Part shown: piece by piece, positions 53,867 to 62,276 of the stretch | Numbering within the stretch: the stretch's first letter is position 1 | How the letters are laid out: the number at the start of each line of letters is the position of its first letter | Assembly (NCBI RefSeq): GCF_004803505.1 | Contig: NZ_SSWH01000006.1 | Span: 1 to 64,000, forward strand | Source of the DNA: Arthrobacter echini | GTDB lineage: Bacteria; Actinomycetota; Actinomycetes; Actinomycetales; Micrococcaceae | DNA: 64,000 nt | Direction of reading: 5' to 3' | The notes under the pieces: model-generated | What the model saw: the letters and a program-made list of their open reading frames with translations, nothing else | Told to the model about the DNA's origin: nothing | Databases searched by the model: none | Position numbers and translations under genes: made by a program

Positions 53867-53924
53867 GGAGCGTCGATGGGCTCGGGGAAGTCCGCTGACG
53901 CCGACTGCACATCAGGAGGCCCGC

Positions 53925-54275
53925 ATGTCCGCGTATCTCAACATCCTGCTCATGCTTTTCGTCGCACTTGTCGTCGCCGGGTGCCTGTACGGTGCGGCGC
54001 GGCTCGTCGCTGTTGCCCGTGAGCCCCTGACCAGCCTGCCGTTCCAGTCCGGCTGGGAACCGTCCGAGCACGCACTGTCCCGCTACCACGCGCGGTACTA
54101 TCCCCTCGCGATGCTCTTCCTGGCGTTCGACGTCGAGATGCTCTTCATGTACCCGTGGGCGGTCATCGTCGCCGACGCCGGGATCGGCGCCGTGATCGAG
54201 ATGTTCGTCTTCCTCGGCGTCCTGATGGCCGGCGTCGTCTGGGCATGGCGCGAAGGGGCGCTGCGGTGGACCTGA
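53925..54275 (+). CDS. nuoA: Complex I-like membrane subunit NuoA
   Basis: Small subunit with three helices that in complex I sits at the junction of the arms. The ATG at 53925 is 5 nt after a perfect AGGAGG and gives 116 residues. Family features are kept: FQSGWEP, RYYPLAMLFLAFDVEMLFMYPWAV with the acidic pair, and WAWREGALRW at the end. It opens an operon that has all membrane subunits but not the peripheral arm. Confidence 0.92.
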   Translation: MSAYLNILLMLFVALVVAGCLYGAARLVAVAREPLTSLPFQSGWEPSEHALSRYHARYYPLAMLFLAFDVEMLFMYPWAVIVADAGIGAVIEMFVFLGVLMAGVVWAWREGALRWT

Positions 54276-55570
54276 TGTCCGCCGTCGCCCGCATGGCTGC
54301 TCGACGTCCGCACGTGCTCGTCGTCGAGGTCCCCGGATGGGCCCTCACCCGGATCAGCGCCGAACGCGAGCTGCGTCGTCGGGGCTGGGTACGCGCGGAT
54401 GCACCGGCGGACTCCGACATCCTGCTCACCTGCGGGCTACCGGGCCCGGAGTTCGGCGAGGTCCTCGACCGCGTCTGGGACCAGCTCCCCGGCCCGAGGG
54501 TACGGGTCGACGCAATGGATCCGGACCAGGTCCTCGCGGTGCTGGACAGGTCCGTGCAGGCGCTCCTGGACGGCGCAACCCAGCGCGACGACGCCGACGC
54601 CCGGACCGCAGCGGCCGCTGGACCGTCGAGTGACCACGACCACGACCACGACCACGGATCGGATCAGGAGACCGAGGAGACCGAGCCGGAGTCTGCTGCT
54701 GACGGTGACGGCGACACGTCCCACGAGGACGGCGACCAGGGGGACACGGCGCACGAGGACACGGACCACGGCGGCATGGACCACGGTGAGGACGACCAGG
54801 CAAATATGAATCATGGGGGCATGGACCACAAGGGGATGTCTCACGGGGACGGCGACCAAGCGGACATGGACCATGCGGGCATGGACCACGGCGACATGGA
54901 CATGCCGATGCCCGGCGGGATCGGCCTGGCCGAGGGGGGGACCGACAGGGACGGCCTCGATCTGGATGTCCTGCATGTCTCGCTCGGTCCGGTGCTTCCG
55001 CATTGGCCGGCAGGATTGGTGGTCCGCTGCTCGCTGCAGGGCGACGTCGTCACCGACGCCTCCGTGGAACTCCTCCGTGCCGCCGATCCAGGCGTGGAGC
55101 AGCTTCATGGGGACGCAGGGATGATGCGTAGTTCTCCTGGGTTCACGAGTGCCCGGACCTGTGACCAGGCGGCCGGCCTGCTGTCCCTCCTGGGGTTCGA
55201 GCGCATGGCGGCACGGGCTGAGCGGCTTCGTGATGCGGTGCTGGACGGAACGCCACCCGATCAGGTCGCCGCGGACGTGGCGCACCTCGGCCGGCACATC
55301 CGTCGGTCGCGGGTGCTTCGTTGGTCCCTGGAGGATCTCCCCGGAGCCCGCGAGCGGTTGCTCGCCATGCTGGGCGCGGCCGAGACGAACCTGGGCAGTG
55401 CGGCCGACGCGGTCACCGCCGTCCGCTACTCCCCCACCGCCGGGACGGCCGGCGTGGAGCAGATCCCCGGGCTGATCACGGGTCTCGATGTCACCGCCGC
55501 GCGGCTCGTGGTCGCCTCATTGGGACTGGACACGGCACCGGTGGCACTGGCAGGCTCCGACCGTGACTGA
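54266..55570 (+). CDS. Fused, degenerate NuoB/NuoD-like protein with His/Met/Asp-rich linker
   Basis: Residues 1-105 resemble NuoB by eye: ADSDILLTCG then VLDRVWDQLPGP (67-77) parallels the NuoB ADVMIVAG and RRVWEQMPDP blocks. None of the four cluster-N2 cysteines is kept. Residues 121-216 are a linker with about 13 His and 9 Met in motifs such as GGMDH and MDHGDMDMP. From residue 235, LHVSLGPVLPHWPAGLVVRC matches the NuoD N-terminus (LGPQHPSTHGVLRL) without its histidines; LLSLLGF...RAERLRDAVL and the final residues also echo NuoD. The central NuoD part is missing. GTG at 54266 has GAAGGGG 7 nt upstream; ATG at 54275 is the alternative. It lies between nuoA and nuoH. No redox function is expected. 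Confidence 0.75.
   Translation: MDLMSAVARMAARRPHVLVVEVPGWALTRISAERELRRRGWVRADAPADSDILLTCGLPGPEFGEVLDRVWDQLPGPRVRVDAMDPDQVLAVLDRSVQALLDGATQRDDADARTAAAAGPSSDHDHDHDHGSDQETEETEPESAADGDGDTSHEDGDQGDTAHEDTDHGGMDHGEDDQANMNHGGMDHKGMSHGDGDQADMDHAGMDHGDMDMPMPGGIGLAEGGTDRDGLDLDVLHVSLGPVLPHWPAGLVVRCSLQGDVVTDASVELLRAADPGVEQLHGDAGMMRSSPGFTSARTCDQAAGLLSLLGFERMAARAERLRDAVLDGTPPDQVAADVAHLGRHIRRSRVLRWSLEDLPGARERLLAMLGAAETNLGSAADAVTAVRYSPTAGTAGVEQIPGLITGLDVTAARLVVASLGLDTAPVALAGSDRD
54626..54913 (+). repeat. Low-complexity His/Met/Asp coding repeat
   Basis: Repeats of GACCAC (four in a row from 54632) and of GGCATGGACCAC-like units encode DHDHDHDH and MDHGGM-type motifs. The repeat is in frame within the NuoB/D-like gene. 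Confidence 0.85.
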
Positions 55571-56495
55571 GGGCATGGTGCAGGTAGGGCCGCTCGGTGC
55601 CCTCACCGCCGCCGTGCTTCTCGGGGTCGTCGCGGTCCTGGCCGCGGCGTTCGACGGGACGCTGGGTGCGCGGCTGCAGGGCCGGCGGGCCTTCTCGGGC
55701 GTGACCGCGCCGCTCTGGGAGGCCGCTCGCCTCCTGAGGCAACGGCGCCGGACGATCGTGGCCGCGGATTCCCTGCTGTGGCGTATCGGCGTGGTGGGGC
55801 TGCTCGTCGTGGCGCTGCTGAAGGTCGTCGTCGTTCCGCTCGGATGGTGGACCGTCGCAGATCTTTCCATCGGCATGGTGTGGTTCAACGCCATGGATGT
55901 GATGGTGTGGGCCCTGGTGTGGCTGATCGGATGGGGAGCGAACAGCGCCCACGCACTCATCGGCGGGTACCGGTTCCTCGGGCAGGCACTGTCCTACGAA
56001 TTGCCGCTGATGTTCGCCCTGACGGGGCCTGCCATCGCTGCAGGCAGCCTGCGGGTGGGGGATGTCGTCGCGGCGCAGCAGGACCTGTGGTTCGTGGTCT
56101 GGATGCCCGTGGCCTTCCTTGTCTTCTGCGCAGGCGTCGTGGCGTTCTCCGTCTGGGGCCCCTTCGGTGCTGCCGCAGGTGAGGACATCGCCGGCGGTGT
56201 CCTCGCCGAGCTGTCGGGCGTCGACCGTCTGCTGGTGCTGGCAGGCCGGTATGCGCTGCTGAGCGCCGGCGCGGGATTCGTCGTCGCACTCTTCCTGGGT
56301 GGCGGGTCGGGTCCTCTTGCTCCTGCGTGGGTGTGGACGCTCGTGAAGACCCTGGCCGTGCTCGCGGCTCTCATCGGGGTACGGCGGCTCCTGCCCGTGG
56401 TGCGCCCGGATCGACTCGCGGAGGTGGCCTGGATCGTCGTCCTGCCCGCGGTGCTGCTCCAACTTCTTCTCGTCGGTGTGATGGTGGTGCTATGA
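55563..56495 (+). CDS. nuoH: Complex I-like membrane subunit NuoH
   Basis: In complex I, NuoH forms much of the quinone chamber and starts the proton path. This one is 310 residues from the GTG at 55563, with about eight helices. The block SAHALIGGYRFLGQALSYELPLM keeps the Glu of SYE(I/L)P. The cytoplasmic loop usually reading PFDLPEAESELVAG is altered to FGAAAGEDIAGGVLAELSG, and the ERK(V)xxRxQxRxGPN loop is reduced to ARLQGRRAF. So the quinone-site loops have diverged. It overlaps its neighbours on both sides. Confidence 0.88.
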   Translation: MTEGMVQVGPLGALTAAVLLGVVAVLAAAFDGTLGARLQGRRAFSGVTAPLWEAARLLRQRRRTIVAADSLLWRIGVVGLLVVALLKVVVVPLGWWTVADLSIGMVWFNAMDVMVWALVWLIGWGANSAHALIGGYRFLGQALSYELPLMFALTGPAIAAGSLRVGDVVAAQQDLWFVVWMPVAFLVFCAGVVAFSVWGPFGAAAGEDIAGGVLAELSGVDRLLVLAGRYALLSAGAGFVVALFLGGGSGPLAPAWVWTLVKTLAVLAALIGVRRLLPVVRPDRLAEVAWIVVLPAVLLQLLLVGVMVVL

Positions 56496-57061
56496 GTGTC
56501 GTTCTCGATGGCGTCTTCTGGCTCCTGGCGGTCGTGTCCGTCGCCTCCGGTATCGCCGTGTTCCGGGTGGACTCCATGGCCCGGGCCACCTATGCCCTGG
56601 CGGTGTCCTTCGTGGCGGTCGGCGCCATGCTGCTGCTGCTGAATCTCGAGTACATCGGGGTGATCACCATCCTGATGATGGTGATGGAGATGGCGATCAT
56701 GGGCATCTTCATGATCATGTTCATGGGCATGAATCCGGCCCTGATGCCGATGAGCATGGTGCACAACAAGGTGGGTTCGCTGGTCCTGGCCGTCGGAGTG
56801 TTCGTCGTCCTGGCCGGAGGCGCGTTGCTCATCGACTGGCCCGATCGCCGAGGTGCACCCGCAGGCGATCTCACCCGCTCCCTGGGAGAGGCCATCATGG
56901 GCTCGAAGATGCTCGTCATGCTCACGGTCAGCCCGCTGCTGTTCGCCACGCTCGTGGCTGCCCTGGTCCTGGCCAACCCGCGTGGGCGCTACGACAGGTT
57001 CGGTGATGACCTGCGCGCCGGGACACCGAGCGGGCCCGCGAGGGAAGGGGACGACTCGTGA
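56492..57061 (+). CDS. nuoJ: Complex I-like membrane subunit NuoJ, Met-rich
   Basis: A 189-residue protein with about five helices. The third helix region, normally containing a Tyr-Gly-Ala pi-bulge, reads ITILMMVMEMAIMGIFMIMF and continues into MGMNPALMPMSM, giving an exceptional cluster of Met with one Glu. It overlaps nuoH (ATGA) and nuoK (GTGA); because it directly overlaps nuoH, there is no room for nuoI. Confidence 0.88.
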   Translation: MSVVLDGVFWLLAVVSVASGIAVFRVDSMARATYALAVSFVAVGAMLLLLNLEYIGVITILMMVMEMAIMGIFMIMFMGMNPALMPMSMVHNKVGSLVLAVGVFVVLAGGALLIDWPDRRGAPAGDLTRSLGEAIMGSKMLVMLTVSPLLFATLVAALVLANPRGRYDRFGDDLRAGTPSGPAREGDDS

Positions 57062-57360
57062 CCCTGGATACCGTTCTGGTGGTGGCGGCGGGTCTGTTCT
57101 CCGTCGGGGTCTACGGCGCGCTGTCCCAGCAGGTCGTCGTGATGGTGATGATGGGACTGGAGCTGATGCTCAACGGCGTGATCCTCGCCGCTGCGGGCCT
57201 CTGGTGGTTCCTCGCGCCTGCCCCGGACGGACAGGTCCTCCTGTTGGTGGTCATCGCGGCGATGACCGTGGAGATGGCGATGGGCTTCGCGGTCGCGACA
57301 CTGCTCAACCGGTCCCGGCAGTCCGACATGACCGACATGGCAACGGATCTGAGCGGATGA
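57058..57360 (+). CDS. nuoK: Complex I-like membrane subunit NuoK
   Basis: A 100-residue, three-helix subunit related to MrpC. Both membrane glutamates typical of NuoK are kept, one in MMGLELMLNGV and one in AAMTVEMAMGFAV. The C-terminus is slightly longer than usual. It starts with GTG overlapping nuoJ. Confidence 0.9.
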   Translation: MTLDTVLVVAAGLFSVGVYGALSQQVVVMVMMGLELMLNGVILAAAGLWWFLAPAPDGQVLLLVVIAAMTVEMAMGFAVATLLNRSRQSDMTDMATDLSG

Positions 57361-59288
57361 GCGCACTGCTGTGGACCCTGGTCGGCCTGCCTGCGCTCGC
57401 AGGGACGCTGCTCTGCCTGGGCGGGCGCCGCCTGACGAGGATCGCCGCTCCGCTCTCGGTCACCGTCGTCGCACTCATCACTGTGCTGTCCGTGCTGGCA
57501 GCAGTACGGCGTCCGGCCCTGGAGCTTCCCTTCATCACGGGTGCCGGCTTCGGCCTCGCCGTCGATCCGCTGTCGGCGGTGGTCCTCCCGACGGTGGCGC
57601 TCGTGGCGCTGCTGGTCCTGGTCTTCGCCTCGACCCGCGACATCGCCGGCGAGGTGTCGCCACCGACGCGATTCCACGGCCTGATGCTGATCTTCGTCGC
57701 AGCGGTGGTGGTGACCGTCACCGCGACCACCCTGCCCGCCCTGTTGTTCGCCTGGGAGGTGATGGGCGCGATGTCCTACGCCCTGATCGGCTTCCGCCGG
57801 CAGGACCAGGACCGGGTATCGGCAGGGCTGACAGCCTTCCTCACCACCCGCACCGCCGACCTCGGGCTCTACGGCGCGACGGCGGCGGCCCTGGCAGCAG
57901 GAACGGGCGCCGCGTTCGTGGAGCTGCCCGCTGCCGAGGAAGGCTGGAGGCACGTGATCGCTGCGGGCGTCCTCCTGGCGGCGCTCGGCAAGGCAGCCCA
58001 GTTGCCGTTCAGCTTCTGGCTCTCCCGCGCCATGGAGGGACCGAGCCCGGTCAGCGCCCTGCTGCATTCGGCGGCCATGGTGGCCATGGGTGGCTACCTG
58101 CTGCTGCGCGTGGCACCCCTGCTGCAGGTGACGGGCTGGGCCGGAGCGGTCACGGCGTGGGTGGGGGTCCTGACCGCCCTGGTCCTGGGGGTCGTCGCCC
58201 TCGCGCAGAAGGATCTCAAGCAGTTGCTGGCCGCCTCGACGGCGGCGCAGCTCGGTTTCGTGGTCCTCGGGGCCGGTCTCGGCGCCGTCGCGGGAGGAAC
58301 GGCACACCTGATCGCCCATGCAGCCACGAAGGCCCTCCTGTTCCTCGTCGCCGGCGCCTGGCTGTCGGCGCTGGGGACCAAGAAGCTGCGCGCCCTGCGG
58401 GGTGCGGCACGCCGGTGGCCCTTGGTCGGCGTCGCGTTCACTCTCGGGGCCCTGAGCCTCGCAGGCGTGGCGCCGCTCGCACTCTGGTCGACCAAGGACG
58501 CGGTACTCGCTGCCGCGCGGGAAGCATCGCCGGGGTTGTACGTCATCGGCCTGATCGCCTCGGCGCTCTCGGCGGCGTACGCGGGCAAGGCACTGGTCAT
58601 CGTCTGGCGCCGTCCCCGACCGGCGACGTCCCTCAACTACGACACCGAGGAACAGGGCTCACGGCGTATCGGGCTCTGGGAGGAGATCCCCCTGCTCGTC
58701 CTCGCGGCCGGAGCCACCGTCCTCGGAGTCCTCGCCCTTCCGCCCGTGGGTACGACGCTCCGGGTCTTCCTGGGGGACGAAGGCTCGTCCACGGCCTCCT
58801 GGTGGGAGCTGGTGCTCTCCGCCGTCCTCGCCCTGGCCGTCCTGCTCCTCGTGGCCCGCGTCGGTGTACCGGAGCCACGCTGGGCAGCTCGATGGTTCGG
58901 CCTCGAGCGCGCAGCGCACGTGCTCGTCGTGGCTCCGGTGCTCTCCCTCGCCAGGGCGCTGGCACGGTTCGACGACCATGTGGTGGACCGAGGGTTACTG
59001 CACGGAGCAGCCCTGGTCGCACGCACCGCGCGGGGCGCCGCGCACGTCGACGACACGCACGTCGATCGCGCAGTGACGGCGACCTCCAGGGGCACAAGCG
59101 CTGCCGCGGTCGCGCTGGAACGGGCCGATACCGGCGGGATCGACGCCGTGGTGCGCGCCGTCGGCCGTGGTGCCCGCCGTCTCGGGGCCCTGGCCCGGAG
59201 ACCGCAGACCGGTCAGGTCCACCAGTACTACGCCCAGGCCGCCGTGTTCCTCGCGGCGGCACTCATCCTCCTGCTCCTCGTGAGGTGA
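57357..59288 (+). CDS. nuoL: Complex I-like antiporter subunit NuoL
   Basis: Antiporter-like subunit of 643 residues. The Glu of TM5 (LLFAWEVMGAMSYALIGFR), a Lys in AALGKAAQLPFSFWL and the AMEGPSPVSALLHSAAMV block are kept, so the half-channel residues look intact. The region after about residue 520 is divergent and hydrophilic before a last helix (AAVFLAAALILLLLVR). Whether it forms the usual long lateral helix is unclear. ATG overlaps nuoK. Confidence 0.92.
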   Translation: MSALLWTLVGLPALAGTLLCLGGRRLTRIAAPLSVTVVALITVLSVLAAVRRPALELPFITGAGFGLAVDPLSAVVLPTVALVALLVLVFASTRDIAGEVSPPTRFHGLMLIFVAAVVVTVTATTLPALLFAWEVMGAMSYALIGFRRQDQDRVSAGLTAFLTTRTADLGLYGATAAALAAGTGAAFVELPAAEEGWRHVIAAGVLLAALGKAAQLPFSFWLSRAMEGPSPVSALLHSAAMVAMGGYLLLRVAPLLQVTGWAGAVTAWVGVLTALVLGVVALAQKDLKQLLAASTAAQLGFVVLGAGLGAVAGGTAHLIAHAATKALLFLVAGAWLSALGTKKLRALRGAARRWPLVGVAFTLGALSLAGVAPLALWSTKDAVLAAAREASPGLYVIGLIASALSAAYAGKALVIVWRRPRPATSLNYDTEEQGSRRIGLWEEIPLLVLAAGATVLGVLALPPVGTTLRVFLGDEGSSTASWWELVLSAVLALAVLLLVARVGVPEPRWAARWFGLERAAHVLVVAPVLSLARALARFDDHVVDRGLLHGAALVARTARGAAHVDDTHVDRAVTATSRGTSAAAVALERADTGGIDAVVRAVGRGARRLGALARRPQTGQVHQYYAQAAVFLAAALILLLLVR

Positions 59289-60781
59289 CCGTGCTCAGTC
59301 TCGTCATTTTCCTGCCCCTTGCCGCAGCGCTCGTCCTGGCGGTCGTCCCGGGCATCCCGGATGCTGTGGCCCGCTGGGCATGGGTGGCGGTCACGGCCGT
59401 GGAGGTGGTCCTCGTCGCCGTCCTGTGGGCCGGCTTCGAGCGGCCGGGAGACGGTGGTGTGGCCTTCGAGGAGCAGGTGGCGTGGATTCCCACGGTCGGC
59501 AGCAGCTATCACGTGGGCGTGGACGGATTGTCCCTGCCGTTACTGGCACTGACAGCGGTGGTGTTCCTCGCCTGCGCCGTCCACGCGGTCGCGGAGCGGG
59601 ACCGCCCGAGACCCCAGTCCGCCCTGTTCCTGTTCCTGCAGACCTCGTGCCTCGGCGTGTTCGCGGCGCAGGATCTCATCCTGTTCTTCCTGTTCTTCGA
59701 TCTGTCGATCGTGGGTATGTACTTCGTGATCGCGGGCTGGGGTCACGGCAATGCCGCAGCGTCGGCCCTGAAGTTCTTCCTCTACACCTTCCTGGGGTCG
59801 CTGGCCCTGCTGCTGGGCTTCATCGGGCTCTATCTCTTCTCCGAACCGCGGACCTTCGACATGGTCGAGCTTGCAGAATCGGCGCCCCTGGACGGCAACC
59901 CCGTGGCCGGGGGGTTCGTCCTCGGCGCCATCCTGCTCGGACTGGCCATCAAGACTCCCACCTTCCCCTTCCACACCTGGCTCCCACCCGCGCACACGGA
60001 CGCCCCGGCCATCGGCTCGGCGGTCCTCGCCGGGATCCTGCTGAAGCTCGGCACCTACGGTTTCGTGCGCATCGCGATGCCCATGCTCCCGGCCGCCTGG
60101 CGGGACTGGGCGTGGGTCATCGTCGTCGTCGGAATCGTCTCCGTGCTCTACGGAGCACTGGTGGCTCTGGCCCAGACCGATCTCAAACGGATGATCGCCT
60201 ACACCTCGGTGAACCACATGGGCTACGTGGTCCTCGCTGTCGGCGCGGCGGGCGTGGCCGGAGGAACCGACACGCAGGCACGCGAACTGGCGGTCACCGG
60301 CGCGCTGACGCAGATGGTGAGCCATGGCCTCATCACCGCGGCCCTGTTCCTGCTCGCGGGAGTGCTGCGGGCCCGTGCCGGGACCTATCACATGAGTGCC
60401 TTCGGAGGCCTCGCCTCGGTGGCCCCGAGGTTCGCGGTGCTGTTCGCGGTCGGTGCGTTCGCCTCGCTCGGGCTGCCGGGATTCAGCGGGTTCATCGCCG
60501 AGTTCCAGATCTTCGCCGGCGCCATCGGAGCGGTCCCCTGGACCGCGCTGGCACTGCCGGGCATCCTGCTCACAGCGGCGCTGTTCCTGCTCGCCACCCA
60601 GCGTCTGCTGACCGGGGAGGTTCGGGAGAAGGCGGTCGGTTTCACGGATCTGCGCGCGTCGGAGGTGCTCTCCATCGGGCCCCTGCTGCTGCTCTCACTG
60701 CTCATCGGCGTGTTCCCCCGCCCGCTGCTGGAGCTGATCGAACCGGCTGCCGCGGTCGTCGTCGATCTCGTCGGACGATGA
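59285..60781 (+). CDS. nuoM: Complex I-like antiporter subunit NuoM
   Basis: Antiporter-like subunit of 498 residues. Two channel lysines are kept (GLAIKTPTFPFHTWLPPAHT and LLKLGTYGF). The essential TM5 glutamate is replaced by Asp139 in LFFLFFDLSIVGMYF. The GTG at 59285 overlaps nuoL; a GTG two codons later is possible. Confidence 0.92.
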   Translation: MTVLSLVIFLPLAAALVLAVVPGIPDAVARWAWVAVTAVEVVLVAVLWAGFERPGDGGVAFEEQVAWIPTVGSSYHVGVDGLSLPLLALTAVVFLACAVHAVAERDRPRPQSALFLFLQTSCLGVFAAQDLILFFLFFDLSIVGMYFVIAGWGHGNAAASALKFFLYTFLGSLALLLGFIGLYLFSEPRTFDMVELAESAPLDGNPVAGGFVLGAILLGLAIKTPTFPFHTWLPPAHTDAPAIGSAVLAGILLKLGTYGFVRIAMPMLPAAWRDWAWVIVVVGIVSVLYGALVALAQTDLKRMIAYTSVNHMGYVVLAVGAAGVAGGTDTQARELAVTGALTQMVSHGLITAALFLLAGVLRARAGTYHMSAFGGLASVAPRFAVLFAVGAFASLGLPGFSGFIAEFQIFAGAIGAVPWTALALPGILLTAALFLLATQRLLTGEVREKAVGFTDLRASEVLSIGPLLLLSLLIGVFPRPLLELIEPAAAVVVDLVGR

Positions 60782-60794
60782 CGCCGGGAATGCC

Positions 60795-62276
60795 GTGGAC
60801 GCTGTGAATGCCGGCATGAGCATGGAGGCGGACTTCGCGGCCCTCCTGCCGGAACTCTTCCTCCTCGCCGGGGCCGTCACGGCGCTGCTGACCGGGTCCT
60901 TCCTGCCCAGGGACAGACAGAGTCCGACCCGCCTGATCGGGATCATCGCTCTGCTCGGTGCTGTGGTCAGTACGGGAACGGGTCTGTCCGCGGGATCCCG
61001 CACGGTGTTCGAGGGCAGCTTCTCCCTCGACACCCCGACCACCATCGCGCGGCTGATCATCTGCACCGCGACGCTGCTCGTCATCTGTCTGGGCGCCGAC
61101 GAACTCCGCGGCAGTCCGCGGGAGAGCGAGACCTATGCACTGATGCTGCTGTCGACCCTGGGCGCCCTGGTGATGGCAGGCACCGACGACCTGCTGATCC
61201 TCGCCGTCGCATACCTGCTCGCCAGCATCCCGCTCTACGCCCTGATCGGCATGGGCCGCTCCCCGCGAGCAGCCGAAGCAGCGCTGAAGACCTACCTGCT
61301 GGGCGCCTTTTTGGGCATCGCCCTGCTCCTGGGCATCACCATCCTCTACGCCCTCGCCGGAGCGAGCAGCTACGATCAGCTGCGCGCCGGGCTGGCGGAC
61401 GCGCCGTCGGGCGCCATCGCTGCCGGGCTCCTCGGTGTGCTGGCAGGGATCGCGTTCAAGGCCGGGGCAGTACCGGGGCATTTCTGGGTGCCGGATGCCT
61501 CTCAGGGTGCCGGTGTCGCCGTCGCTGCCTTTTTGACGACCGTACCGAAGATCGGGGCGCTCGTCGCCGCGTACCGGCTTCTCAGCACGCTGCCGGACTC
61601 GGTCGACGCGCCCCTGGTGATCGCGGTGCTGGCCGCCGCGAGCATGACCATCGGCAACTTCGCGGCGTTCTCCCAGACGAATGTCCGGCGCCTGCTGGGC
61701 TGGTCCACGGTCAGCCAGGCCGGGTACCTTCTGGTTCCCGTGGCCGTCGCCGGGGCCAGTGACCTGGCACTGCCGTCGCTGCTGTTCTACCTGGGCGCCT
61801 ACGCGCTGTCGAACATCGGTGCGTTCGCCGTCGTCGCCGCCACCGGGCATGACGAAGTCGGGCAGTACCGGGGCCTGGCGCGGAGGAGTCCGTGGCTGGC
61901 CGGTGTGCTCGTGGTGAGCCTGCTGAGCCTGGTCGGCACACCGCCCACGGTCGTGTTCGTCGGCAAACTCACCACCTTCGCCGCGGGCTGGGACGGCGGA
62001 CTTGCGTGGCTGGTCGTGGTCGCGGCCCTGAATACCGTGGCGAGCCTGTTCTACTACCTGCGCTGGCTCGCTCCCATGTTCCAGGGGGCGGAGTTCCAAC
62101 GGGCGGCCACCGAGTCGACAGAACCCTCGACGCCGGACCAGCAGGCAGGCGACACCGTGGGGGTGAGGCGGTGGCCGGCAACCGTCGCGGTGCTCAGCGG
62201 AGGACTCGTGGTGGCGGGCGGGGTGGTGGCAGGCCTCGTCTGGCCGGCGCTCGAGGGAACGCTGGCCGGCCTGTAA
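60795..62276 (+). CDS. nuoN: Complex I-like antiporter subunit NuoN
   Basis: Antiporter-like subunit of 493 residues from GTG at 60795; an ATG at 60816 is an alternative. Lysines in AFKAGAVPGHFWVPDASQG and TTVPKIGAL are kept. In the TM5 segment, DLLILAVAYLLASIPLYALIG has Leu where NuoN usually has Glu. It is the last gene of the operon, followed by a GC-rich hairpin. Confidence 0.92.
   Translation: MDAVNAGMSMEADFAALLPELFLLAGAVTALLTGSFLPRDRQSPTRLIGIIALLGAVVSTGTGLSAGSRTVFEGSFSLDTPTTIARLIICTATLLVICLGADELRGSPRESETYALMLLSTLGALVMAGTDDLLILAVAYLLASIPLYALIGMGRSPRAAEAALKTYLLGAFLGIALLLGITILYALAGASSYDQLRAGLADAPSGAIAAGLLGVLAGIAFKAGAVPGHFWVPDASQGAGVAVAAFLTTVPKIGALVAAYRLLSTLPDSVDAPLVIAVLAAASMTIGNFAAFSQTNVRRLLGWSTVSQAGYLLVPVAVAGASDLALPSLLFYLGAYALSNIGAFAVVAATGHDEVGQYRGLARRSPWLAGVLVVSLLSLVGTPPTVVFVGKLTTFAAGWDGGLAWLVVVAALNTVASLFYYLRWLAPMFQGAEFQRAATESTEPSTPDQQAGDTVGVRRWPATVAVLSGGLVVAGGVVAGLVWPALEGTLAGL

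What the first reader, a model, noticed from the sequence alone, without database searches (positions are those of the whole stretch)
53925..62276. Complex I membrane arm without a peripheral arm, encoded as one operon
The genes read A, B/D-like fusion, H, J, K, L, M, N with 4-nt or similar overlaps. No nuoC, E, F, G or I is present, and the overlaps leave no space for them. The tight coupling and intact reading frames argue for selection, not decay. Without NADH-oxidising or Fe-S subunits, the complex cannot work as NADH:quinone oxidoreductase unless those subunits are encoded elsewhere. It may be an ion transporter or antiporter, or use another electron donor.
Basis: partly seen in the sequence, partly recalled or inferred. 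Interest (0 to 1): 0.9.

Follow-up and report, generated by a model that had tools for sequence, protein, structure and literature searches.

The report
Copper-linked machine from respiratory complex I
Some soil, sea and other bacteria carry the membrane half of the respiratory enzyme complex I without its electron-carrying half; its genes often sit with copper-defence genes, in some behind a copper-sensing switch, and are lined with copper-loving methionines, so it is probably a copper transporter and not a respiratory enzyme.

Summary
Observation confirmed: eight intact genes, nuoA-BD-H-J-K-L-M-N (53925-62276). The genome (99.99% complete) has no NuoB, C, D or F family match. The order recurs across Actinomycetota and in marine Proteobacteria, so it is not decay. 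BD is a cofactor-less NuoB domain, a disordered Met/His/Asp-rich linker and a domain folding like NuoD. The operon is in print as a 'partial nuoAHJKLMN' marine-adaptation proton pump, with the gene after nuoA left 'hypothetical'.

New here: a copper link. Copper genes (CsoR, CopZ, CopA, multicopper oxidase) lie within 7 kb in 63 of 125 non-redundant loci against 3 of 40 control regions. The CsoR operator TACCC-N5-GGGTA precedes nuoA in 24 of 120 against 1 of 692 control ORFs. This genome has five such sites: one precedes a second, mobile copy of the operon, four are by copper-type genes. Proteobacterial copies sit by CueR/CopA/CopZ or copper oxidase/CopB. Seventeen methionines in NuoJ/K/A are shared by both phyla and absent from seven complex I rows.

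Best reading: a proton-driven Cu(I) transporter, probably an exporter. The copper link is strong; transport and direction are inferred. The window copy itself has no copper neighbours and lacks the operator its relatives have.

The parts
53925..54275 (+). nuoA-like gene; family-specific M72, M75 beside D69/E71
   Evidence: PF00507 E 4e-27; residues
54275..55570 (+). BD: degenerate NuoB domain (about 1-118), disordered Met/His/Asp-rich linker (about 121-206), NuoD-fold domain (about 216-418); no invariant Cys
   Evidence: hhalign to NuoB E 6e-6; AF2 mean pLDDT 80 whole and 85.6 for the C-terminal domain; Foldseek NuoB and 49-kDa hits; conservation
55563..56495 (+). nuoH-like gene (310 aa); Ecoli E157 and E228 kept, E216/E218/E241 lost
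   Evidence: PF00146 E 6e-44; residues
56492..57061 (+). nuoJ-like gene (189 aa) with 15 Met columns conserved in at least 90% of 56 rows (M62-M89 ladder), plus E66 and H91
   Evidence: PF00499 E 5e-12
57058..57360 (+). nuoK-like gene (100 aa); E35, E72 kept; family-specific M29, M31, M69, M73
   Evidence: PF00420 E 5e-12
57357..59288 (+). nuoL-like antiporter subunit (643 aa); Ecoli E144/K229/K399 kept
   Evidence: PF00361 E 5e-50
59285..60781 (+). nuoM-like antiporter subunit (498 aa); Ecoli K234/K265/E407 kept, E144 as D
   Evidence: PF00361 E 2e-66
60795..62276 (+). nuoN-like antiporter subunit (493 aa); Ecoli E133 is Leu in 56 of 57 rows
   Evidence: PF00361 E 4e-51
53867..53924 (+). 58-bp aspC-nuoA gap; three close relatives have a longer gap with a CsoR operator at -156/-157, absent here

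Best explanation
The operon encodes a complex I-derived membrane machine that serves copper homeostasis. Shown: a conserved eight-gene unit without redox subunits, copper neighbours in about half of loci, CsoR operator or CueR context in two phyla, and family-specific methionines in NuoJ/K/A. Inferred mechanism: cytoplasmic Cu(I) is caught by flexible metal-binding tails (the Met/His/Asp-rich linker of BD in Actinomycetota, a His-rich C-terminal tail of NuoJ in the Proteobacteria seen), enters the A/J/K/H module and crosses the membrane along the methionine ladder of NuoJ TM3 and the Met/Glu pairs of NuoK and NuoA. Energy comes from protons through the antiporter-like subunits L and M (N is altered), coupled along the lysine chain as in complex I. 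BD sits where the quinone module sat, as a redox-dead cap that gates the module or receives copper from CopZ. Likely direction: export from the cytoplasm. My odds by step: copper homeostasis function about 0.85; proton-coupled Cu(I) translocation about 0.5; export about 0.45.
For: (1) Neighbours: CsoR, CopZ, CopA or multicopper oxidase within 7 kb in 63 of 125 non-redundant loci vs 3 of 40 control regions, p 6e-7; first test 25 of 46 vs 3 of 40. Clustering all ORFs without chosen references gives DUF305, P-type ATPase, multicopper oxidase, F510_1955, CopZ and CsoR as the most frequent non-operon neighbours. (2) Regulation: CsoR operator upstream of nuoA in 24 of 120 loci vs 1 of 692 control ORFs; 10 of the 24 have none of those four copper genes within 7 kb. 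The consensus is experimental (PMC3902906, passages). (3) Own genome: five such sites in 3.18 Mb; one precedes nuo copy 2, two precede csoR-copZ-copA, one is by a copZ, one by DUF305. (4) Second phylum: the operon or its remnant lies beside copper genes in 6 of 7 proteobacterial plasmid records viewed. (5) 17 Met sites (J 11, K 4, A 2) in at least 52 of 56 actinobacterial and 3 of 3 proteobacterial rows, 0 of 7 complex I rows; L, M, N not Met-enriched. (6) M63, 67, 70, 74, 78 lie on one helix face. (7) Residues of L, M, K and A used for protons in complex I (roles recalled) are kept. (8) 12 of 29 strong carriers in an order sample have NuoD, 17 do not: it exists apart from complex I.
Against: 52 of 125 loci have neither such a copper gene within 7 kb nor the operator; the window copy is one: no copper hit in window 43001-64000 or 19 kb beyond. 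The BD linker is only 9 and 25 aa in L103 and L104. Met/His/Asp motifs also suit Ag, Zn or Ni. Nothing was measured. NuoN lost Ecoli E133 and NuoH part of its acidic loop, so coupling may be weak or different. Literature ties the operon to seawater and osmotic growth. The copper reference search is loose (E 1e-6; it includes distant oxidases and other metal ATPases), though equally so in controls; controls are 40 regions I chose, and loci are related by descent. Some copies are broken.
Confidence: 0.55

Rival explanations
1. Copper-gated proton or Na+/H+ antiporter: copper binding to BD or NuoJ switches a proton or sodium flux that defends pmf or pH during copper stress; copper itself does not cross.
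For: Antiporter residues of L and M kept; copper regulation and neighbours; published link to seawater growth (PMC6676996 section 18; PMC3314556 passages).
Against: A sensor site would not need a methionine stripe along NuoJ TM3 plus Met in K and A.
Confidence: 0.22
2. Copper redox enzyme: copper on BD or NuoJ exchanges electrons with quinone or a thiol partner, and the arm pumps protons from that reaction.
For: DsbA, CcdA, ResB or cytochrome c genes are neighbours in several loci; own copy 2 has ResB and a CcdA-like gene.
Against: No invariant Cys in BD; by eye the NuoD GPQHP motif reads GPVLP; Ecoli NuoJ Tyr59 is Met in 57 of 57 rows.
Confidence: 0.1
3. Marine/osmotic adaptation proton pump (published view): a partial NDH-1 that keeps a proton or sodium gradient in seawater.
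For: Gene-content comparisons in Salinispora, Streptomyces and Kocuria (passages and one section).
Against: No NuoB, C, D or F in this genome to drive a redox pump; plasmid carriers include soil, glacier and sputum isolates; it does not explain the copper context. The Kocuria and Streptomyces papers themselves mention copper genes or copper-mine strains.
Confidence: 0.08
4. Decaying remnant of complex I.
For: Redox parts lost; some copies are broken: two Martelella plasmids and a Pseudarthrobacter plasmid by transposases, nuoH of L085 split by about 1.4 kb and L232 without BD and H between A and J.
Against: dN/dS 0.07-0.39; full order in 20 of 20, 23 of 26 and 72 of 80 loci; antiporter residues kept.
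Confidence: 0.02

Closest known systems
'Partial NDH-1 / nuoAHJKLMN' operon of Salinispora, Streptomyces and Kocuria flava (PMC3314556, PMC4018334, PMC6002675, PMC6676996)
   Same: By the papers' description the same layout: nuoA, a hypothetical gene, then H, J, K, L, M, N (PMC6676996 section 18); scattered in Actinobacteria with nearest clades in Proteobacteria, mostly marine (PMC3314556 passages).
   Different: Read there as a proton pump for seawater; the hypothetical gene is left without homologues. A copper link, the BD identity and the Met ladder were not in the passages I saw. I did not compare those papers' sequences directly.
Respiratory complex I (NDH-1)
   Same: Membrane arm A, H, J, K, L, M, N; antiporter lysines and NuoK glutamates.
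   Different: NuoB, C, D, F not found; a cofactor-less BD fusion in place of the quinone module; NuoJ/K/A methionines; NuoH loop and NuoN changed.
Mrp-type Na+/H+ antiporters
   Same: Complex I-like antiporter subunits without redox chemistry (recalled).
   Different: Has NuoH and NuoA and a BD cap, which Mrp lacks (recalled); copper context.
Second reduced operon in another family of the order (L165, L166: A, B, NuoC-like, H, later J-N)
   Same: Sister of this family in a NuoM+H+K tree, support 1.0.
   Different: Keeps a NuoB; outside the clade.
CusA and CTR-type methionine-lined copper transporters
   Same: Would work alike: a methionine path for Cu(I) (recalled).
   Different: Unrelated folds; analogy only, not membership.

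Membership tests
Respiratory complex I (NADH:quinone oxidoreductase) | Membrane-arm subunits A, H, J, K, L, M, N | tested here: met
   Pfam above cut-off for all seven
Respiratory complex I (NADH:quinone oxidoreductase) | NuoF (NADH/FMN site) in the genome | tested here: not met
   PF01512: 0 matches in own genome
Respiratory complex I (NADH:quinone oxidoreductase) | NuoE, NuoG, NuoI in the genome | not tested
   Not searched
Respiratory complex I (NADH:quinone oxidoreductase) | NuoB with the four Cys of cluster N2 | tested here: not met
   No PF01058 in own genome; no invariant Cys in BD
Respiratory complex I (NADH:quinone oxidoreductase) | NuoC and NuoD | tested here: not met
   No PF00329 or PF00346 in own genome
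Respiratory complex I (NADH:quinone oxidoreductase) | Quinone-site His motif of NuoD | tested here: inconclusive
   GPVLP where NuoD has GPQHP, matched by eye; hhalign aligned only the C-terminus
11-subunit complex I (without NuoEFG) | NuoB, C, D, I present | tested here: not met
   B, C, D absent from own genome; NuoI not searched
Mrp antiporter | No NuoH or NuoA homologue (recalled) | tested here: not met
   NuoH and NuoA are present; MrpE/F/G not searched
CsoR regulon | TACCC-N5-GGGTA operator upstream (window copy) | tested here: not met
   No exact match in the window, two one-mismatch matches far away
CsoR regulon | TACCC-N5-GGGTA operator upstream (own copy 2, and family) | tested here: met
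   Copy 2 at -255; 24 of 120 loci of the family
Copper transporter | Measured Cu(I) binding or transport | not testable with these tools
   Needs protein

The most novel reading that the evidence does not exclude
Evolution turned the proton-pumping arm of respiratory complex I into a redox-free, proton-motive-force-driven Cu(I) pump, with a methionine ladder in the very helix (NuoJ TM3) whose twist gates complex I, a dead quinone module as copper-receiving cap, and spread between phyla on copper-resistance plasmids. It would be a new class of metal transporter and a natural test bed for how complex I couples its quinone site to its antiporters.
Probability: 0.45. Interest if true: 0.95.

Novelty: new variant of a known kind. 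Interest (0 to 1): 0.87.

Why it matters
It lies on plasmids of environmental and clinical Actinobacteria, and its subunits are mostly annotated there as NADH-quinone oxidoreductase, which misleads metabolic models. A copper role replaces an untested marine-pump reading by one that a gene deletion can test. If transport holds, it is the first case known to me of a complex I scaffold moving a transition metal, and it isolates the membrane half of complex I from redox chemistry, which bears on the open question of how complex I couples.

Tried and rejected
Tried and led nowhere: the first genome-contig scan, with BD alone, confirmed no relative, probably because its patterns came largely from variable parts; the NuoJ alignment worked. 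hhalign of the NuoD-like domain against NuoD is weak (probability 1.7%, E 0.029, C-terminus only); the NuoD claim rests on the predicted fold, where Foldseek gives no E below 0.01 and rmsd mostly 8-14 A, but nearly all of the best 50 are NuoD-type chains. Pfam and NCBIfam gave no family above cut-off for BD; NCBIfam's NuoB subfamily matched 17 of 20 members weakly. First complex I comparators L165-L169 were mostly not full operons; I replaced them by L260-L265. In one search the length filter left 3 NuoJ comparators; one search used 7, with long C-terminal tails cut. Considered and rejected: inorganic-carbon uptake (no DabA-like or carbonic anhydrase family among the operon's genes); decay.

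Results against or beside the reading: NuoF-family matches exist in 24 of 149 family genomes, not the window's, and in 7 of the 21 BD-matching ones (G029, 045, 056, 069, 076, 113, 115); I did not identify them. Of 13 of 16 actinobacterial plasmid records viewed, 7 have CopA, CopZ, CsoR or multicopper oxidase annotated in the stretch (two of the 7 near-identical), and four hold an incomplete or broken operon (L116, L118, L120, L121). Of 8 records I viewed 7. Dropped rows: L051 (weak BD match) had no operon hits; L107 left out of A5; 140 loci merged to 125; truncated L108, L109 stayed in the 46. In one search, 43 of 347 genomes matched: I count 29 as strong, 14 as weak matches at model positions about 42-79 (one at 7-88), probably ordinary NuoB.
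Full report
OBSERVATION. The window holds eight intact, tightly spaced + strand genes, A-BD-H-J-K-L-M-N. Seven match complex I membrane-subunit families; the second gene, BD, matches no Pfam family. The genome (3.18 Mb, 41 contigs, 99.99% complete) has no NuoB, C, D or F family match; NuoE, G and I were not searched. None of 149 sampled genomes of the same family has NuoD. NuoH is found in 19 of 149, all among the 21 that match BD. NuoF-family matches occur in 24 of 149, including 7 of the 21 BD-matching genomes but not the window's; what they belong to I did not find out.

NOT DECAY. The full order A-BD-H-J-K-L-M-N is seen in 20 of 20 same-family loci, 23 of 26 order-level loci (the other 3 are at contig ends) and 72 of 80 named loci. 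Exceptions: nuoH of L085 is split by about 1.4 kb, and L232 lacks BD and H between A and J. dN/dS between window and a same-genus genome (L032) is 0.07-0.22 for the membrane subunits and 0.39 for BD. Of 29 genomes in an order-wide sample with strong BD matches, 12 also have NuoD and 17 do not, so the unit exists with and without complex I.

WHAT BD IS. About its first 118 residues are a NuoB relative: hhalign against seven NuoB sequences gives E 6e-6, probability 85%, and the profile matches Thermus Nqo6 in the PDB at E 2e-5. No cysteine is invariant in BD, so the N2 iron-sulphur site is gone. The C-terminal domain is predicted to fold like NuoD: AlphaFold2 pLDDT 85.6; nearly all of the best 50 Foldseek hits are 49-kDa/NuoD-type chains, probability up to 1.00, TM-score by query length mostly 0.5-0.6, but no E below 0.01 and large rmsd. 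Sequence profiles alone do not show it. Between them lies a disordered linker, rich in Met, His and Asp (mean 40%, mean length 73 over 39 rows, L107 misparsed), but only 9 and 25 aa in two members.

COPPER NEIGHBOURHOOD. On plasmids the operon often sits with csoR-copZ-copA, multicopper oxidase, DUF305 and similar genes: 7 of 13 actinobacterial records viewed have CopA, CopZ, CsoR or multicopper oxidase annotated in the stretch. I tested chromosomal and other loci against 40 regions of the same genomes (one only 5.3 kb): CsoR, CopZ, CopA or multicopper oxidase in 25 of 46 operon loci against 3 of 40 (Fisher p 2.5e-6), and 38 of 80 named loci. After merging near-identical loci: 63 of 125 within 7 kb against 3 of 40, p 6e-7. 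Without choosing references, clustering all ORFs of 139 operon loci (duplicates included) against the 40 controls ranks, after the operon's own genes and one cluster that reads the strand opposite nuoJ, a DUF305-type protein (44 vs 2), P-type ATPase (34 vs 2), multicopper oxidase (29 vs 1), F510_1955 (28 vs 0), CopZ type (27 vs 0) and CsoR type (25 vs 1) (cluster names by eye, with members of L031/L283 checked in Pfam for DUF305, HMA, ATPase and CsoR). An earlier count said 159 loci; 139 is right.

COPPER REGULATION. The CsoR operator of Streptomyces lividans is a TAC-X9-GTA inverted repeat with G-tracts, e.g. ATACCCCCTAGGGGTA (PMC3902906, passages). TACCC-N5-GGGTA lies within 300 bp upstream of nuoA in 24 of 120 non-redundant loci against 1 of 692 control ORFs (p 3e-20), and in none of the first 1.9 kb of six complex I loci; 10 of the 24 have none of the four copper genes within 7 kb. 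The window's genome has five such sites in 3.18 Mb (reversed-pattern control: 1): one upstream of nuoA copy 2, two upstream of csoR-copZ-copA, one by a copZ, one near a DUF305 gene. Copy 2 thus looks like part of a five-site CsoR regulon.

TWO COPIES. Copy 2 (contig C8; L031) lies in a mobile-looking stretch: ResB, CcdA-like, F510_1955-like, DUF305, operator, nuo operon, ion channel, transposase, then copA-copZ-csoR. It is 99.994% identical over 16.4 kb to Arthrobacter echini P9 (L172), although the chromosomal nuo region of the same two genomes is only 82-87% identical: recent transfer. The window copy sits after aspC as in three close relatives (L032, L170, L171). They carry the operator at -156/-157 in a longer aspC-nuoA gap; the window's gap is 58 bp and has no operator, and no copper gene was hit in window 43001-64000 or in C38 63000-82900. 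So the window copy is the one whose copper control seems lost, perhaps relieved by copy 2 (inference).

SECOND PHYLUM. A NuoJ search of plasmids found marine Proteobacteria. Acuticoccus and Roseivivax carry nuoA-hypothetical-H-J-K-L-M-N beside cueR, copA, copZ and copper oxidases; Halomonas KO116 beside a copper-resistance multicopper oxidase and copB. Two Martelella plasmids have cueR, copA, copZ and multicopper oxidase with the operon cut by a transposase after part of the hypothetical gene. Copper genes are annotated in 6 of 7 records viewed; Vreelandella shows only hypothetical proteins there. A NuoM+H+K tree of 40 rows joins 3 proteobacterial with 28 actinobacterial operons (support 1.0) apart from complex I. 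This is an independent group, in several cases with a different copper regulator.

METHIONINE LADDER. NuoJ of this family has 15 Met columns conserved in at least 90% of 56 rows, and Met is 9.2% of NuoJ; L is poorer in Met than its complex I relatives (1.4% vs 3.5-4.6%), and M and N are no richer. Seventeen sites (J M29, 62, 63, 67, 70, 74, 78, 80, 87, 89, 140; K M29, 31, 69, 73; A M72, 75) are Met in at least 52 of 56 actinobacterial rows (58 of 58 for A) and 3 of 3 proteobacterial rows and in 0 of 7 complex I rows; J E66, J H91 and A H55 behave alike. M63, 67, 70, 74 and 78 lie within 80 degrees on an ideal helix. M63 replaces Ecoli NuoJ Tyr59, in the helix whose alpha/pi change gates complex I (role recalled). 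The K and A methionines lie near the conserved carboxylates. Where the hypothetical protein lacks a metal-binding tail (Proteobacteria), NuoJ ends in a His-rich tail instead.

MECHANISM. Antiporter residues of L and M and the NuoK and NuoA acids are kept; NuoH lost part of its acidic loop and NuoN Ecoli E133 (residue roles recalled). Together: a proton-coupled machine without redox chemistry, with a Cu(I)-type path in A/J/K. I commit to proton-driven Cu(I) translocation, most likely export because of the resistance-type neighbours. Shown: genes, order, neighbours, operator, methionines. Inferred: copper binding, transport, direction, role of BD, membrane topology.

LITERATURE. The layout is in print as 'partial NDH-1' marine adaptation genes (PMC3314556, PMC6002675, PMC4018334, PMC8622039: passages; PMC6676996: section 18 and passages); the gene after nuoA is called hypothetical without homologues. 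Searches of an open-licence library listed no paper that I could see linking it to copper; I saw listings and starts of abstracts only, and subscription papers are mostly not held. PMC12361115 (passages) counts incomplete complex I sets without naming this one there.

Noticed in passing
G000:C8 (L031, L282, L283): Second nuo copy on a segment 99.994% identical over 16.4 kb to Arthrobacter echini P9 (L172), with csoR-copZ-copA and a transposase on the same contig: recent transfer between species.
   Followed up: yes
window 53867-53924: A CsoR operator present in three close relatives is missing here; the aspC-nuoA gap is only 58 bp.
   Followed up: yes
L266-L268, nuoJ: Proteobacterial NuoJ has a His-rich C-terminal tail where Actinobacteria have the BD linker: the metal-binding tail seems to have moved between subunits.
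   Followed up: partly
L165, L166: Another reduced operon (A, B, a NuoC-like ORF, H, later J-N) is the sister group of this family in the tree; its function is also unclear.
   Followed up: no
many loci, e.g. L031:3962-5861: DUF305 and F510_1955-like (BNR-repeat) proteins recur beside the operon; candidate secreted copper-handling proteins.
   Followed up: no
24 of 149 family genomes: NuoF-family matches without NuoD in the same genomes; possibly other NAD-linked dehydrogenases, not identified.
   Followed up: no
plasmid records CP070277.1 and NZ_CP066787.1: A plasmid labelled Dysgonomonadaceae has the same length (166348) as a Martelella plasmid and the same BD match; perhaps a mixed culture or mislabelled record.
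   Followed up: no
L267: In Halomonas KO116 the operon is followed by ergothioneine genes egtB-egtD.
   Followed up: no
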